A stretch of DNA of 25,428 bases from a virus, in the IMG/VR virus record IMGVR_UViG_3300032236_000886, positions 1 through 25,428 of that record. One strand, 5' to 3'. Under the pieces are notes generated by a model, which was not told the DNA's origin, made no database searches, and worked only from the letters and a program-made list of their open reading frames with translations. Below, in pieces: positions 7,859 through 25,203 of this stretch. Within the stretch, counting starts at the first letter, position 1. Each line of letters starts with the position of its first letter. Made by a program: the position numbers and the translations under genes.

Positions 7859-8028
7859 TTCTGCCTGAAACGCTTTTGCGCCACCAGTTCCCCCACCGCG
7901 CCCCCACCGTCCCGATACCATTCAGGAGTCCCGTCAGCTGCTTACACTCTATTCCCCTCAAACAGTCCCCAATCCCCCTGAATCCGGGACCCACCCCCTT
8001 TACTTTATAAAGCCCACCAAAAAATTTT

Positions 8029-8034
8029 TATAAT
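8029..8034 (+). promoter_or_regulatory. Possible upstream rightward promoter (-10 only)
   Basis: A perfect TATAAT follows an A/T tract, but no good -35 is present at 16-18 bp. Transcription would start near 8041 and give terS a leader of about 78 nt. Confidence 0.25.
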
Positions 8035-8082
8035 TCATTTTTCATGCAGTCACGTTCCAGAACAGGCCCCCTTTGATATTGT

Positions 8083-8118: not shown

Positions 8119-8724
8119 ATGCTGACCATAATCCCAGAGCTGTGTGTCCCGCTGCCCGAAGACGAGGCGGCTACGCTGACCTTGCACGAAAAGGCCGCTG
8201 CACTGTTCAAGACGGTGGAGTTCCTACAAACATTTGGCATCGAAGTCGAGCCCACGGGTGAGGATGAAGTGCGGGCCCGCGCTGCGGTGGCCGGGACGAT
8301 TGGTGCCAACCCTGAAGCTGCCGATCCCCCTGCGGGCGCCGCGATGGCCGTGGCCAACACTGCTGGGTCAGTCGTACATCTGAAAAACATACTTAGCGAA
8401 TACGACCAGATCGTGGTCAAGTCGGCCGTGCAGATTCGCACCTATGTCACCAACAAGCTGATCGAAGAGTCCAACAACCGGGACCCAAAGATTCGCATGC
8501 GGGCATTGGAATTGCTAGGCAAGATCGGCGACGTGGGTCTGTTCGTTGAGCGCACCGAGGTGACCGTGAAGCACAAGACCACGATCGAATTGCAGACCTC
8601 CATCAAGGAGCGCATCTCCCGCTTGCTGCAAGTCAAGAGCAAGGCCGAAGAAATCCAAGAGCTGCCGGTCAAGGCGGTGAGTCTGCGTGAGTCCGCAGAC
8701 CGGGTGTTGGCCGACGATGAGTAA
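8119..8724 (+). CDS. terS: Terminase small subunit (probable)
   Basis: The 201-residue protein lies directly upstream of the large terminase and overlaps it by 8 nt, the standard terS position. Its first half is acidic and Ala-rich. The second half is helical, with SEYDQIVVKSAVQIRTYVTN, NRDPKIRMRALELLGKIGDVG and a C-terminal coiled segment (TSIKERISRLLQVKSKAEEI). The alignment-free resemblance is to phage small terminases that bind the packaging site and feed DNA to TerL. An in-frame TTG at 8083 exists, but the ATG at 8119 is preferred. No ribosome site precedes it; see the leaderless-promoter note. It is the first gene of the late operon. Confidence 0.7.
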   Translation: MLTIIPELCVPLPEDEAATLTLHEKAAALFKTVEFLQTFGIEVEPTGEDEVRARAAVAGTIGANPEAADPPAGAAMAVANTAGSVVHLKNILSEYDQIVVKSAVQIRTYVTNKLIEESNNRDPKIRMRALELLGKIGDVGLFVERTEVTVKHKTTIELQTSIKERISRLLQVKSKAEEIQELPVKAVSLRESADRVLADDE

Positions 8725-21735: not shown

Positions 21736-21987
21736 ATGGCAAAATCACCTGCATGGACTCGCAAAGAAGGCAAGAACCCCAACGGCGGCTTGAACGCCAA
21801 GGGCCGAGCGTCTGCGAAAAAACAAGGGATGAACTTGAAACCTCCCGCCCCGCACCCAAAAACAGAGAAGGACGCCGCCCGTCGCAAATCTTTTTGCGCC
21901 AGAATGAGTGGCATGCCGGGGGATATGAAAGATGAAAAAGGTAAGCCAACACGTAAAGCGTTGTCTTTGAAAGCATGGAACTGCTGA
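21736..21987 (+). CDS. DUF6321-like small basic protein (83 aa)
   Basis: The pattern SPAWTRKEGKNPNGGLNAKG (residues 4-23), then RRKSFCARMSGMPGDM (about 49-64) and a C-terminal Trp-Asn-Cys, matches what I recall of the DUF6321 family found in aquatic phages and plants. It is basic, soluble and without signal peptide. Function is unknown. The ribosome site is weak. Its end overlaps the start of the endonuclease gene by 13 nt. Confidence 0.65.
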   Translation: MAKSPAWTRKEGKNPNGGLNAKGRASAKKQGMNLKPPAPHPKTEKDAARRKSFCARMSGMPGDMKDEKGKPTRKALSLKAWNC

Positions 21988-22394
21988 CTAAAGCATGCAC
22001 CCGGTGTAAAACGGAAAAACCGCTTAATGCGGATTATTTTCCGTTACATAACAAAACAAAGTCTGGGTATGACAGCTGGTGTCGTGCATGTCGCAGAGAA
22101 TATAGAAACGCAAACTCAAGGGGCGCGTATCGTAATGTGATCTCTGATGAGGCGTTGCTGGAATTAAAAGCCACGACACATTCGTGTGTCATTTGTGGCG
22201 ATACAACAAAGTTGGTTGTTGATCATGATCATGCAACCGGCAAGATTCGTGGCATGCTTTGTAACCATTGCAATCGCGGGCTTGGGCATTTTAGAGACGA
22301 CCCCATGCTACTGGAGTTTGCGGCACAATACTTATACGCATCGATAGATTCCCCCAAATGGGACAACTACAAAGAAACGAAAGTGCTGACATGA
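21975..22394 (+). CDS. Endonuclease VII-family HNH nuclease
   Basis: The 139-residue protein has an N-terminal CTRC...CRAC zinc pair and the characteristic CVICG...LVVDHDHATGKIRGM...CNHCNRGLGHFRDDP block (about residues 71-110), the metal-binding His-Me finger of recombination endonuclease VII (T4 gp49 family). This nuclease cuts Holliday junctions and other branched DNA before packaging. T4 endoVII is 157 aa, so the length is similar and the domain is complete. It overlaps the holin-like gene by ATGA. Its place in the late operon suits clearing branches during packaging. Confidence 0.9.
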   Translation: MELLTKACTRCKTEKPLNADYFPLHNKTKSGYDSWCRACRREYRNANSRGAYRNVISDEALLELKATTHSCVICGDTTKLVVDHDHATGKIRGMLCNHCNRGLGHFRDDPMLLEFAAQYLYASIDSPKWDNYKETKVLT

Positions 22395-22588
22395 CCGAAC
22401 ACCACGAAACTGCCAAAACTGTCGCCGATGGGCTGGCGATCATCACCGTGCTTGGCACGCTCAATGCGTGGCTTCCGCCGTTGGCATCCCTTTTCACCAT
22501 CATCTGGATGTTGTTGCGTATTTGGGAAACAGACACCGTACGTGGCTGGACCGGCCGTAAGGAGAAACCCAGTGCCGTCGACGAGTAA
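22391..22588 (+). CDS. Holin-like membrane protein (65 aa)
   Basis: The ATG at 22391 overlaps the endonuclease stop. Hydrophobic residues from about 14 to 44 (LAIITVLGTLNAWLPPLASL then FTIIWMLLRIWE) form one or two membrane segments split by a Pro-Pro turn, followed by a basic tail (GWTGRKEKP). This is the usual design of small phage holins that permeabilise the inner membrane at lysis. No endolysin is visible in the window, so the call rests on size, hydrophobic pattern and late position. Confidence 0.65.
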   Translation: MTEHHETAKTVADGLAIITVLGTLNAWLPPLASLFTIIWMLLRIWETDTVRGWTGRKEKPSAVDE

Positions 22589-23000
22589 AAAACAACACCG
22601 TTTCATGGAAGCGGTGGCCCATAATCCAGCTTTCGCCAAGAAGGCAGGTGTTCCCCAGTCCGTGGGCGCTGATTTCAGCGCCGCAGACAAGGGTAAAAAG
22701 TTCGGCAAGGGTGGCAGCACCCGCGCAGACGTTCAGCGTGTTAATGAGCCCAAAACCCATCACGGGGACATGGCTCTTTTTAAAAAAGGTGGTGATACTA
22801 TGGCTTCTAAAATGAACCCCGGTTTTATGGCAATGATGGCAAAGAAAAAAGATGGCGCCAAAGCCGAAATGCCAATGAAAAAAGGCGGCCCTGCTAAGAA
22901 GATGGCGTCCGGCGGTTTCACCCGCGCAGCTGATGGCATTGCCTCCAAGGGCAAGACCAAGGCCAAGCAAATCAAAATGGCCTCTGGCGGAAAGTGCTAA
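22572..23000 (+). CDS. Basic phage protein with RADGIA-type C-terminal motif (142 aa)
   Basis: The GTG at 22572 has AAGGAG upstream (22559-22564) and is preferred over an earlier frame-open region. The first half (SKKQHRFMEAVAHNPAFAKK, then VGADFSAADKGKKFGKGG) resembles small basic proteins I recall in aquatic phages. After an internal ATG (22800), itself preceded by AAAGGTGG, comes a second basic part ending MASGGFTRAADGIASKGKTK and more Lys. It may be two fused genes or have an internal second start. The charge suggests nucleic-acid or capsid-interior binding, but that is not shown. Confidence 0.68.
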   Translation: MPSTSKKQHRFMEAVAHNPAFAKKAGVPQSVGADFSAADKGKKFGKGGSTRADVQRVNEPKTHHGDMALFKKGGDTMASKMNPGFMAMMAKKKDGAKAEMPMKKGGPAKKMASGGFTRAADGIASKGKTKAKQIKMASGGKC

Positions 23001-23003
23001 ATC

Positions 23004-23504
23004 ATGGCAACCCGCAAACCTCGTAAATTTGTCGATGGCGGCGACATAGAAGCCGCAAACGCTACGGATGACCCGATTGCGTCATTGAATGCTTCACGCC
23101 GCTGGACTGATAGCGAGGCGGGCCCTGCGAAAAAGTCTTTCAAGGAAGCCTTTGCAGAAGCTCGTAAAAGTGGCGGGAAGTCATTTGAGTGGGAAGGTAA
23201 AAAGTTCACCACGGATTTGGCAAGTGACAAGCCCAAAGCTGCGGCTGTTTCTACTCCCGCCAAGGAAAAATACGAGACTCCATACGATCGTATGAATCGC
23301 CAAAACCGTGAAGCTGCGCAATCCAAGGCAGACACCAAAGCCGAGACTGAACGTCTGGCCAAGCGCTCTCCTGCACCGGGGCGCGGCGTGTTCAAAACCA
23401 GTGAGCAAAAGTTCATGGGTAGTGGCATGAAAAAAGGTGGTTCCGTTTCCAGCCGTGCCGATGGCATTGCGCAACGCGGTAAGACGCGTGGGAAGTACCT
23501 ATGA
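23004..23504 (+). CDS. Basic phage protein with C-terminal RADGIA motif (166 aa)
   Basis: KPRKFVDGGDIEAANATDDP opens a polar, probably disordered protein with charged stretches (KKSFKEAFAEARKSGGKSFE, RQNREAAQ). It ends VSSRADGIAQRGKTRGKYL, which repeats the motif of the protein before it (RAADGIASKGKTKAK). The motif's terminal location suggests a tag recognised by a partner or a packaging signal. Function unknown. Confidence 0.68.
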   Translation: MATRKPRKFVDGGDIEAANATDDPIASLNASRRWTDSEAGPAKKSFKEAFAEARKSGGKSFEWEGKKFTTDLASDKPKAAAVSTPAKEKYETPYDRMNRQNREAAQSKADTKAETERLAKRSPAPGRGVFKTSEQKFMGSGMKKGGSVSSRADGIAQRGKTRGKYL

Positions 23505-23668
23505 TGCCCAGTCGCGGTATGGGGGCCGTCTCCCCCAGCAAACTGCCGGGTAAGATGCCCAAGGGCGTGAAGAAGGCCCGCCGTGACAACACCGATTTCA
23601 CCGAGTACAAAAAGGGTGGCAAGGTCACCAAGATGTGTGATGGTGGGATGTGGAAAGGGAAGAAGTGA
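23501..23668 (+). CDS. Tiny basic protein (55 aa)
   Basis: Translated by hand. The start overlaps the previous stop by ATGA and the TGA of this gene overlaps the next ATG (TGATG). Sequence features are LPGKMPKGVKKARRDNTDF and a Lys/Gly tail with KKGGKVTKMCDGG. The KKGG segment recalls the two upstream proteins. No named family. Confidence 0.6.
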   Translation: MMPSRGMGAVSPSKLPGKMPKGVKKARRDNTDFTEYKKGGKVTKMCDGGMWKGKK

Positions 23669-23820
23669 TGGCTACCAAGCCCGGCCTGTACGCCAACATC
23701 CACGCCAAGCAGAAGCGGATCGCTGAAGGCTCGGGCGAGAAGATGCGCAAGGTCGGCGCCAAGGGCGCTCCCACCAAAGCCGACTTCACAAAATCGGCAA
23801 AGACTGCAAGGAAGAAGTGA
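23668..23820 (+). CDS. Tiny basic protein of a recurrent phage type (50 aa)
   Basis: Translated by hand. KPGLYANIHAKQKRIAEGSG and EKMRKVGAKGAPTKADF define a recurrent small phage protein that I recall but cannot name. It is dominated by Lys and has no signal peptide or membrane segment. It overlaps both neighbours by one base, in the coupled small-gene run. Confidence 0.62.
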   Translation: MATKPGLYANIHAKQKRIAEGSGEKMRKVGAKGAPTKADFTKSAKTARKK

Positions 23821-23996
23821 TGGCTACCAAAAACTGGATCGCGGGTGCGATCAAAAAGCCCGGCGCTCTGCGCAAAGAACTTGGCGCCAAGAAGGGTGAA
23901 CCCATCCCTGCCAAGAAGCTAGCTGCGGCTGCAAAGAAACCCGGCACAGAGGGCAAGCGTGCCCGTCTGGCCCAAACCCTAAAAGGACTCAAATAA
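23820..23996 (+). CDS. Tiny Lys/Ala-rich histone-like protein (58 aa)
   Basis: Translated by hand. NWIAGAIKKPGALRKELGAK, then a Lys/Ala helix AKKLAAAAKKPGTEGKRARL, looks like a bacterial or eukaryotic linker-histone tail. Such proteins often condense DNA. I recall similar unnamed proteins in phages and some marine bacteria. The TAA overlaps the next start by one base (TAATG). Confidence 0.65.
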   Translation: MATKNWIAGAIKKPGALRKELGAKKGEPIPAKKLAAAAKKPGTEGKRARLAQTLKGLK

Positions 23997-24268
23997 TGTC
24001 ACAGTTCACTTTCACCCCCGAAGAAGACGCATTGGTCGTCGATTGCTTGCGTGCGCGTGCGCAGCAGCAAGAAAGCTTTTTGGGCGCCGTGTCGCCCGCT
24101 CTGGCCGCTTTGCTTGCCAAAGTTGAAGGTGAGCCTGTTGCTGAAGAAGCTCCGGCTGAAGAAGCTCCGGCTGAAGAAGCTCCGGCTGAAGAAGCTCCGG
24201 CTGAAGAAGCTCCGGCTGATGAGGCTCCTGCTGAAGAAGCCCCTGCTGAAGACGACGCTGAGGAGTAA
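23996..24268 (+). CDS. Acidic EEAPA-repeat protein (90 aa)
   Basis: A helical N-terminal 45 residues (FTPEEDALVVDCLRARAQQQ) precede seven AEEAPA-like repeats (about residues 49-84) and an acidic end DDAEE. The repeats come from a 15-nt tandem duplication. The tail is probably disordered and strongly negative, in contrast to the five basic proteins just before it. It could act as a charge partner or DNA mimic, or just be a flexible linker; this is inference. Confidence 0.65.
   Translation: MSQFTFTPEEDALVVDCLRARAQQQESFLGAVSPALAALLAKVEGEPVAEEAPAEEAPAEEAPAEEAPAEEAPADEAPAEEAPAEDDAEE
24140..24244 (+). repeat. 15-nt tandem repeat, seven units
   Basis: Five perfect copies of GCTGAAGAAGCTCCG (24140-24214) are followed by two diverged copies (24215-24244). 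The repeat is in frame and encodes AEEAP. Perfect copies beside diverged ones suggest recent slippage, so copy number may vary between relatives. Confidence 0.95.
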
Positions 24269-24270
24269 TC

Positions 24271-25203
24271 ATGGCCATCACTTCCGGCTCGACCGCGTTT
24301 AACCTTGACCTTGTTGAATTGGTCGAGGAGGCGTATGAACGCGCCGGGAGTGAGGTTCGTTCGGGCTATGACTTGCGCACAGCGCGACGTAGCCTCAACC
24401 TGCTGTTCGCCGATTGGGCCAACCGTGGGGTCAACATGTGGACGATTGAGCAGGGTGTCATCAACTTGGTGCCCGGCCAAAACACGTATCCGCTACCGAA
24501 TGACACGGTAGATTTGCTGGAGCACGTCATCCGCACCGGCGGCAATGTGGCTTCCACCCAAGCTGACTTGACCATCACACGCATTAGCGTTTCTACCTAT
24601 GCGACCATCCCGAACAAAATTCAGCAATCTCGTCCAATTCAGGTATGGGTGCAGCGGCTTGATGGCCAAACAGCTGCGCCGCTCTCGGCACTTTCGGGTG
24701 GCATTACTAGTACTGACAGTACCATTACGCTCACCACGACCGTAGGCATGCCAGCGACTGGGTTCATCAAGGTCGACAGCGAGACAATCCAGTACGGCTA
24801 CATCGAAGGCAACGTGCTGAACAACTGTTTCCGTGGGCAGAACAACACGACTGCCGCAGCCCATTCCACCGCCGCTGCGGTGTCCATGCAGAACCTCCCG
24901 GCCGTCACCGTATGGCCCACCCCTGACAGCGTGCAGGACTACCAATTCGTGTACTGGCGCCTGCGCCGCACCCAAGATGCTGGTGGTGGTGTGAACGTCA
25001 TGGACGTCCCCTTCCGCTTCATCCCCTGCATGGCAGCTGGCCTGTCGTACTACATCGCAATGAAAGTGCCCGGTGGCATGGAGCGCCTGCAAGTGCTCAA
25101 GATGCAGTACGACGAGGCTTGGAACTCTGCCGCAAACGAAGACCAAGAGAAAGCCGCTGTGCGGTTTGTGCCACGTCAGATGTTCATCGGCGGGGGCACC
25201 TGA
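24271..25203 (+). CDS. Head-to-tail adaptor, P22 gp4-like
   Basis: The 310-residue protein opens DLVELVEEAYERAGSEVRSG, YDLRTARRSLNLLFADWANR and WTIEQGVINLVPGQNTYPLP. This is the helical-then-strand pattern of podovirus adaptor proteins (P22 gp4, which stabilises packaged DNA under the portal). The C-terminus (PFRFIPCMAAGLSYYIAMKV, LQVLKMQYDEAWNSAANEDQ) fits the same family. Between about residues 130 and 215 lies an added beta-domain (STDSTITLTTTVGMPATGFI, GNVLNNCFRGQNNTTAAAHS) not needed by a minimal adaptor, perhaps surface-exposed. GAGGAG lies upstream. The next gene overlaps by one base. Confidence 0.75.
   Translation: MAITSGSTAFNLDLVELVEEAYERAGSEVRSGYDLRTARRSLNLLFADWANRGVNMWTIEQGVINLVPGQNTYPLPNDTVDLLEHVIRTGGNVASTQADLTITRISVSTYATIPNKIQQSRPIQVWVQRLDGQTAAPLSALSGGITSTDSTITLTTTVGMPATGFIKVDSETIQYGYIEGNVLNNCFRGQNNTTAAAHSTAAAVSMQNLPAVTVWPTPDSVQDYQFVYWRLRRTQDAGGGVNVMDVPFRFIPCMAAGLSYYIAMKVPGGMERLQVLKMQYDEAWNSAANEDQEKAAVRFVPRQMFIGGGT

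What the first reader, a model, noticed from the sequence alone, without database searches (positions are those of the whole stretch)
22572..24268. Five tiny basic proteins in a row followed by an acidic repeat protein
Seen: the genes at 22572, 23004, 23501, 23668 and 23820 encode strongly Lys-rich proteins, the last looks like a histone tail, and the 23996 gene is its charge opposite. Four of the five junctions overlap by 1-4 nt and one has a 3-nt gap, so they are likely co-expressed. Inference: DNA-condensing or internal head proteins with an acidic chaperone-like partner.
Basis: partly seen in the sequence, partly recalled or inferred. Interest (0 to 1): 0.62.

Follow-up and report, generated by a model that had tools for sequence, protein, structure and literature searches.

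The report
Phage basic-protein cassette with C-terminal tag
A row of tiny lysine-rich phage genes is a conserved, mix-and-match set that keeps turning up among head-assembly genes of very different phages, and some members end in a shared short tail tag that may be an address label for loading proteins into the virus particle.

Summary
In detail: p1-p5 and DUF6321 (21736-21987) are the six most basic genes in the window (run of five, P about 0.0003), tightly coupled upstream of an SU10-type adaptor. Relatives keep 4-5 basic ORFs there. The acidic gene is not conserved, so the chaperone-partner idea is not supported.

The proteins are modules. p4 and DUF6321 homologues lie between scaffold and capsid genes in T7-like pelagiphage HTVC022P. 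DUF6321 ends long Lys-rich proteins beside gp16/gp17 in T4-like cyanophages, once behind a sequence resembling T4's capsid-targeting sequence. The p1 N-terminal domain begins CBB_322, detected in virions by mass spectrometry.

New: p2 ends in a tag, GG...(A/G)DG(I/C)A-x-(R/K)GKT(R/K)G-x-x-x-COOH, carried by many unrelated bodies (77 single-linkage clusters) around the adaptor. 247 of 367 unique copies end exactly three residues after the core; third codon positions are nearly randomised, so it is conserved as protein. Some DUF6321 genes here carry it.

Best reading: virion cargo, the tag being a putative loading signal that works like T4's (inferred). No tagged protein has been shown in a virion, and the CTS-bearing cyanophage protein is absent from its phage's published virion proteome. 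DNA condensation is untested.

The parts
21736..21987 (+). DUF6321 protein (83 aa, net +15), basic module of the same set
   Evidence: Pfam PF19846 89.3 bits against cut-off 28.5; 69 loci by phmmer; in 508 phage records
22391..22588 (+). holin-like single-TM protein, context gene
   Evidence: sequence; phmmer homologs in 38 loci; no PHROG or Pfam hit
22572..23000 (+). p1, 142 aa, net +20, N-terminal SKKQ-type domain plus KKGG-rich C-terminus
   Evidence: PHROG 16759 (1.5e-19) and PHROG 22033 'virion structural protein' (1.5e-10); 74 loci
22572..22709 (+). SKKQ-type domain of p1 (residues 1-46)
   Evidence: 72% identical over 39 aa to PHIKZ165.1; N-terminus of CBB_322; CBB_322 detected in virions (PMC5259590)
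22923..22997 (+). p1 C-terminus, longer variant of the tag (ADGIASKGKTKAKQIKMASGGKC)
   Evidence: tag scan: tails of 10-14 residues form the second class
23004..23504 (+). p2, 166 aa, net +14, variable body with C-terminal tag
   Evidence: no Pfam or NCBIfam family and no credible PHROG (best E 0.29); hits in other loci are largely to the tag
23427..23501 (+). canonical C-terminal tag MKKGGSVSSRADGIAQRGKTRGKYL
   Evidence: 410 cores in 166 loci; 247 of 367 unique end 3 residues after the core
23501..23668 (+). p3, 55 aa, net +11, N-terminal module SRGMGxxxPSKMP...DFTEYKKGGKV
   Evidence: homologs in 78 loci; fused to p4, p5 or another basic module elsewhere
23668..23820 (+). p4, 50 aa, net +11, GLYANIHAKRKRIA...GEKMRK module
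   Evidence: PHROG 16028, 4.4e-25; 123 phage records incl. cyanophages and pelagiphages
23820..23996 (+). p5, 58 aa, net +13, WIxxAIKKPGALRKxLG...IPAKKLAAAAKKPG module
   Evidence: 22 loci; HTVC027P 70% identical to a family consensus; alignment A5
23996..24268 (+). p6, acidic repeat protein (90 aa, net -23), probably not part of the conserved cassette
   Evidence: 15-bp tandem repeat; only L126 weakly similar
24271..25203 (+). portal adaptor (SU10_adaptor), anchor gene of the cassette
   Evidence: Pfam PF24175 32.0 bits against cut-off 27

Best explanation
The cassette encodes modular virion cargo (internal head or ejected proteins). The strongly basic modules p1, p3, p4, p5 and DUF6321 are made late with the head genes and, by inference, enter the procapsid with the scaffold and stay with the DNA. 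The variable members such as p2 are carried by a shared C-terminal tag, inferred to bind a fixed assembly component (scaffold, portal or adaptor) and so load unrelated bodies into the particle, as the N-terminal CTS does for T4 internal proteins. Shown: modules, synteny, fusions, C-terminal anchoring and protein-level conservation of the tag. Inferred: virion location, the tag's partner and its loading function, interaction with DNA, ejection.
For: Same modules among head genes in three phage types: upstream of the adaptor in P22-like relatives; HTVC022P gp31 (p4) and gp32 (DUF6321) between scaffold gp28 and capsid gp33, S-RIP1 gp54-gp55 between head-assembly and major head genes; DUF6321 at the end of Lys-rich proteins (many +37 to +66) next to gp16/gp17 in cyanomyophages. 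S-SZBM1_192 starts MKTFKQYITEA, with aromatic residues at 4 and 7, I at 8 and E at 10, the CTS positions discussed in PMC9026906; only 2 of 3,473 Met starts in that genome fit the motif, the adjacent genes 191 and 192. In this lineage 10 of 114 unique DUF6321 ORFs carry the tag at the C-terminus: the same cargo domain with a CTS-like start in one lineage and the tag in the other. p1's N-terminal domain begins CBB_322, found in virions with 30 peptides. Tag: 77 body clusters among 246 bodies; 247 of 367 unique copies exactly 3 residues from the stop against about 1% by chance; within-locus aa identity 78% but third-position identity 38%; where the adaptor is in the locus the tags lie -4.1 to +1.4 kb from it, and in 12 long records they form one cluster each.
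Against: No tagged protein is known in a virion. S-SZBM1_192 is not in that phage's published virion proteome of 30 proteins, and in silico digestion gives it 8 usable tryptic peptides, so low detectability is only a partial excuse. The tag lies nearest the adaptor, so a tail or connector location fits as well. The large candidate ejection proteins of G005/G006 lack the tag. Many tagged bodies are only slightly basic. Most other DUF6321 proteins examined have no CTS-like start; S-CAM3 gp139 only resembles one.
Confidence: 0.5

Rival explanations
1. The tag anchors minor proteins to the outside of the connector or tail (adaptor, nozzle, fibres), and the basic modules are structural cement there.
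For: Tags cluster around the adaptor gene on both sides, and 76 of 85 loci found by tag alone contain this adaptor family.
Against: The same basic modules sit between scaffold and capsid genes in T7-like phages and beside terminase genes in T4-like phages; DUF6321 is linked to a head-targeting-like sequence in S-SZBM1. The bodies show no obvious fibre features.
Confidence: 0.2
2. The genes are late-expressed cytoplasmic proteins that act on host or phage DNA or on stress tolerance and are never packaged.
For: Small basic proteins of unknown function; DUF6321 protein absent from one virion proteome.
Against: Persistent head-operon synteny across unrelated phages; CBB_322 in virions; an exact C-terminal tag is unexpected for unrelated cytoplasmic proteins.
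Confidence: 0.18
3. One reading: histone-like DNA-condensing proteins held soluble by the acidic repeat protein.
For: Charges of +11 to +20 against -23 in adjacent genes.
Against: 49 of 52 cassettes have no strongly acidic ORF; besides the window the two others are unrelated. Its repeat is a 15-bp tandem array. No credible histone or nucleoid-protein family hit and no PDB fold match.
Confidence: 0.07
4. The shared C-terminus is a DNA-level feature (recombination or insertion site) that happens to be translated.
For: High turnover of bodies next to a constant end.
Against: At identical residues third-position identity within a locus is only 38% over 986 sites, and many synonymous codons of G, A, T and R are used.
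Confidence: 0.05

Closest known systems
Phage T4 internal proteins IPI, IPII, IPIII and Alt with capsid-targeting sequence
   Same: Small basic proteins, variable between relatives, unrelated bodies sharing a short terminal signal, head cargo (PMC9026906).
   Different: T4 signal is N-terminal and removed by prohead protease; here it is C-terminal, different in sequence, and cleavage is unknown.
DUF6321 (PF19846) and its T4-like cyanophage carriers (T4-GC119)
   Same: 21736-21987 is a full member; the cyanophage proteins are strings of Lys-rich modules ending in DUF6321.
   Different: Here most modules are separate tiny genes rather than one long protein.
SKKQ-type domain proteins of jumbo phages (PHIKZ165.1, CBB_322, RaK2 ORF156)
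   Same: p1 residues 1-46 match in sequence and N-terminal position.
   Different: p1 continues into a KKGG-rich tail with a tag-like end, not into a large structural protein.
P22/T7 ejection proteins
   Same: Would also be internal, ejected head cargo encoded in the late operon.
   Different: No sequence relation found; the candidate large ejection proteins of relatives (737 and 2887 aa in G006) carry no tag.

Membership tests
DUF6321 (PF19846) | score above curated cut-off | tested here: met
   89.3 bits against 28.5, residues 12-81 of gene 21736
SU10_adaptor (PF24175) | score above curated cut-off (gene 24271) | tested here: met
   32.0 bits against 27
T4-type internal proteins with CTS | N-terminal ~10-residue CTS like MKT(F/Y)xx(F/Y)IxE | tested here: not met
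   none of p1-p5 or DUF6321 starts so in the window; S-SZBM1_192 does. Not filed as members; the claim is 'works like'
T4-type internal proteins with CTS | present in the virion head | not testable with these tools
   no virion proteome of a tagged phage found; CBB_322 shares only the p1 N-terminal domain
T4-type internal proteins with CTS | basic, variable bodies sharing one terminal signal | tested here: met
   77 body clusters with one C-terminal tag, 81% of bodies net positive though often weakly
Histone-like or nucleoid proteins | sequence or fold relation to a known DNA-binding family | tested here: not met
   no credible Pfam/NCBIfam/PHROG hit; p6 matches Rv3852_fam at 20 bits against cut-off 100, low complexity; no Foldseek match for DUF6321 or p5 models of pLDDT 72 and 64
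Acidic chaperone partner of basic proteins | conserved acidic gene beside the basic cassette | tested here: not met
   49 of 52 loci have no strongly acidic ORF there

The most novel reading that the evidence does not exclude
A previously undescribed C-terminal virion-loading tag lets an abundant, almost uncultivated phage lineage package a rapidly changing set of unrelated proteins, a C-terminal counterpart of the T4 capsid-targeting sequence that could be used to find injected phage effectors by sequence alone.
Probability: 0.4. Interest if true: 0.78.

Novelty: new variant of a known kind. Interest (0 to 1): 0.6.

Why it matters
If the tag loads proteins into virions, any gene ending in it becomes a candidate injected phage protein, giving a sequence handle on host-takeover and anti-defence proteins in aquatic phages that are nearly all uncultivated. 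It also links little-understood tiny basic genes of cyanophages, pelagiphages and jumbo phages to one common theme, head cargo.

Tried and rejected
Acidic partner: p6 compared over all loci and its N-terminal half searched separately; not conserved. PDB sequence searches of p1 and DUF6321: nothing. AlphaFold models of DUF6321 and p5 are low confidence and Foldseek gave no match. Tag alone by tblastn in isolates: no match, the query being very short; genome contigs gave 5 loci, four with tag-bearing ORFs on MAG contigs and one doubtful (L253). DNA-repeat explanation of the tag rejected by codon variation. Cleavage of cyanophage strings at E|G sites by a prohead protease was looked at but the site definition is too loose to count. 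Naming the p3 extension 'DUF5872' was dropped: Pfam gave no hit for it; only an HTVC023P module hits DUF5872, below cut-off. RaK2 ORF156 is annotated virion structural protein but the paper's main text does not name it.

Full report
What the window is. The window is a whole 25,428-bp IMG/VR virus record. Plus-strand genes include a terminase at 8687, portal 10270, a scaffold-like gene 13420, coat 15764 (by position and homologs in annotated relatives) and an SU10-type adaptor at 24271. Relatives of its portal among isolates are distant (44% identity or less): Planktothrix phage Pag-Yong1, DSL-LC04, 023Pt_psg01, Pelagibacter phages HTVC023P and HTVC027P, Roseobacter phages CRP-901/902. Uncultivated relatives are many.

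Observation. The five basic genes and the acidic one are as described, with junctions +3, -4, -1, -1, -1. p1-p5 and the DUF6321 gene at 21736 are the six most basic genes of the window; a run of five this basic has P = 0.0003 under shuffled gene order. In 52 loci (the window included) with at least 4 kb upstream of the adaptor there are on average 4.5 basic ORFs there, and apart from the window no counterpart of the acidic gene.

Modules. p1 is found in 74 loci, p3 in 78, DUF6321 in 69, p5 in 22 and p4 in 20. p3's N-terminal part is fused to p4 (for example L084, L139), to p5 (L113, L160, L018) or to another basic module (L002, L013); PHROG 11180 holds both p4 and DUF6321 stretches. These fusions suggest that the window's separate genes act together.

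Head context elsewhere. In T7-like HTVC022P, gp31 (p4) and gp32 (DUF6321) lie between scaffold gp28 and capsid gp33; in S-RIP1 the same pair lies between head-assembly and major head genes. In T4-like cyanophages DUF6321 ends long Lys-rich proteins with further basic modules, next to gp16 or gp17. In S-SZBM1 the DUF6321 protein (gene 192) starts MKTFKQYITEA. T4 internal proteins are basic, variable and carried into the head by a 10-residue N-terminal CTS whose residues 4 and 7 target and 8 and 10 govern cleavage (PMC9026906); the T4 sequence itself (MKTYQEFIAE) is from memory. A scan of all Met starts in S-SZBM1 found the motif only in the adjacent genes 191 and 192. S-CAM3 gp139 (MKSFKDLRSDITEAAWTRKEGK) resembles it; most other DUF6321 proteins examined do not start so. 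Against this, S-SZBM1_192 is not listed among 30 MS-detected virion proteins.

p1's N-terminal domain. It matches PHIKZ165.1-type proteins and the N-terminus of CBB_322, detected in CBB virions with 30 unique peptides and 43.6% coverage (PMC5259590).

The tag. Many cassette ORFs with unrelated bodies end alike. Over 249 loci there are 410 tag cores in 166 loci; of 367 unique cores 247 end exactly three residues after the core, where about 1% would by chance, and most of the rest 10-12 or 19-20 residues after it. Bodies of 246 canonical proteins form 77 clusters by single linkage at E < 1e-3. Residues D, G, G and T of the core are invariant; the last three residues are typically K/R, then M/F/I/Y, then V/C/Y/I/L. 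Within a locus tags share 78% of residues but only 38% of third positions at identical residues, so selection acts on protein. In 12 records of 52-68 kb the tags fall in one cluster; where the adaptor is in the locus they lie -4.1 to +1.4 kb from it, and 76 of 85 tag-first loci contain the adaptor. One isolate, Pag-Yong1, has it on UMO75986 between coat and adaptor. Ten of 114 unique DUF6321 ORFs carry the tag.

Mechanism. Two lineages attach the same basic domain to different terminal signals: a CTS-like N-terminus in a T4-like phage, the C-terminal tag here. The simplest account is that the tag is a loading signal for virion proteins. Which component reads it, whether it is cut and whether cargo is ejected are inferred. 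A tail or connector location is the main rival, since the tag is tied to the adaptor gene. DNA condensation by the strongly basic modules is plausible but untested; tagged bodies are on average only slightly basic.

Novelty. Known kind: internal head proteins with a targeting signal. New here: a C-terminal tag whose carrier p2 has no match to named families in the libraries searched, and the cross-phage link of the basic modules. The literature search was limited to open papers and does not prove the tag undescribed.

Noticed in passing
L261 1322-1513 (G006) and L256 16978-17244 (G005): Small basic proteins just downstream of the adaptor end in a second, similar C-terminal motif, TDGIK(I/M)RGTGAATKG...RGPMA, possibly a relative of the tag.
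   Followed up: partly
L264 197-802 and 3135-3872 (HTVC023P gp30, gp32): Pelagiphage basic proteins end in other short motifs (IKARGGGMARMKPTKMY; RPDGIRGVGAAIRGHKFIGVK); gp30 has a hydrophobic N-terminal stretch like the large tagged family.
   Followed up: no
L269 23312-23629 (S-SZBM1_191); L277 2755-3069; L275 2742-3050: The gene beside the DUF6321 gene in cyanophages has a conserved CTS-like start (MK(S/N)F(K/Q)xFLSES) on a ~100-aa protein, another candidate internal head protein.
   Followed up: no
window 21975-22394: Endonuclease VII-like gene between DUF6321 and the holin-like gene; a similar-looking endonuclease ORF interrupts the cassette of L012 (9375-9833), so mobile endonucleases may help reshuffle it.
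   Followed up: no
window 24140-24252: 15-bp tandem repeat (7.5 copies, 93% match) encoding EEAPA repeats in the acidic gene, likely length-variable.
   Followed up: partly
L253 around 8001-8075: A tag occurs on a Patulibacter MAG contig without other phage markers of this lineage; possibly a chimeric or misbinned contig.
   Followed up: no
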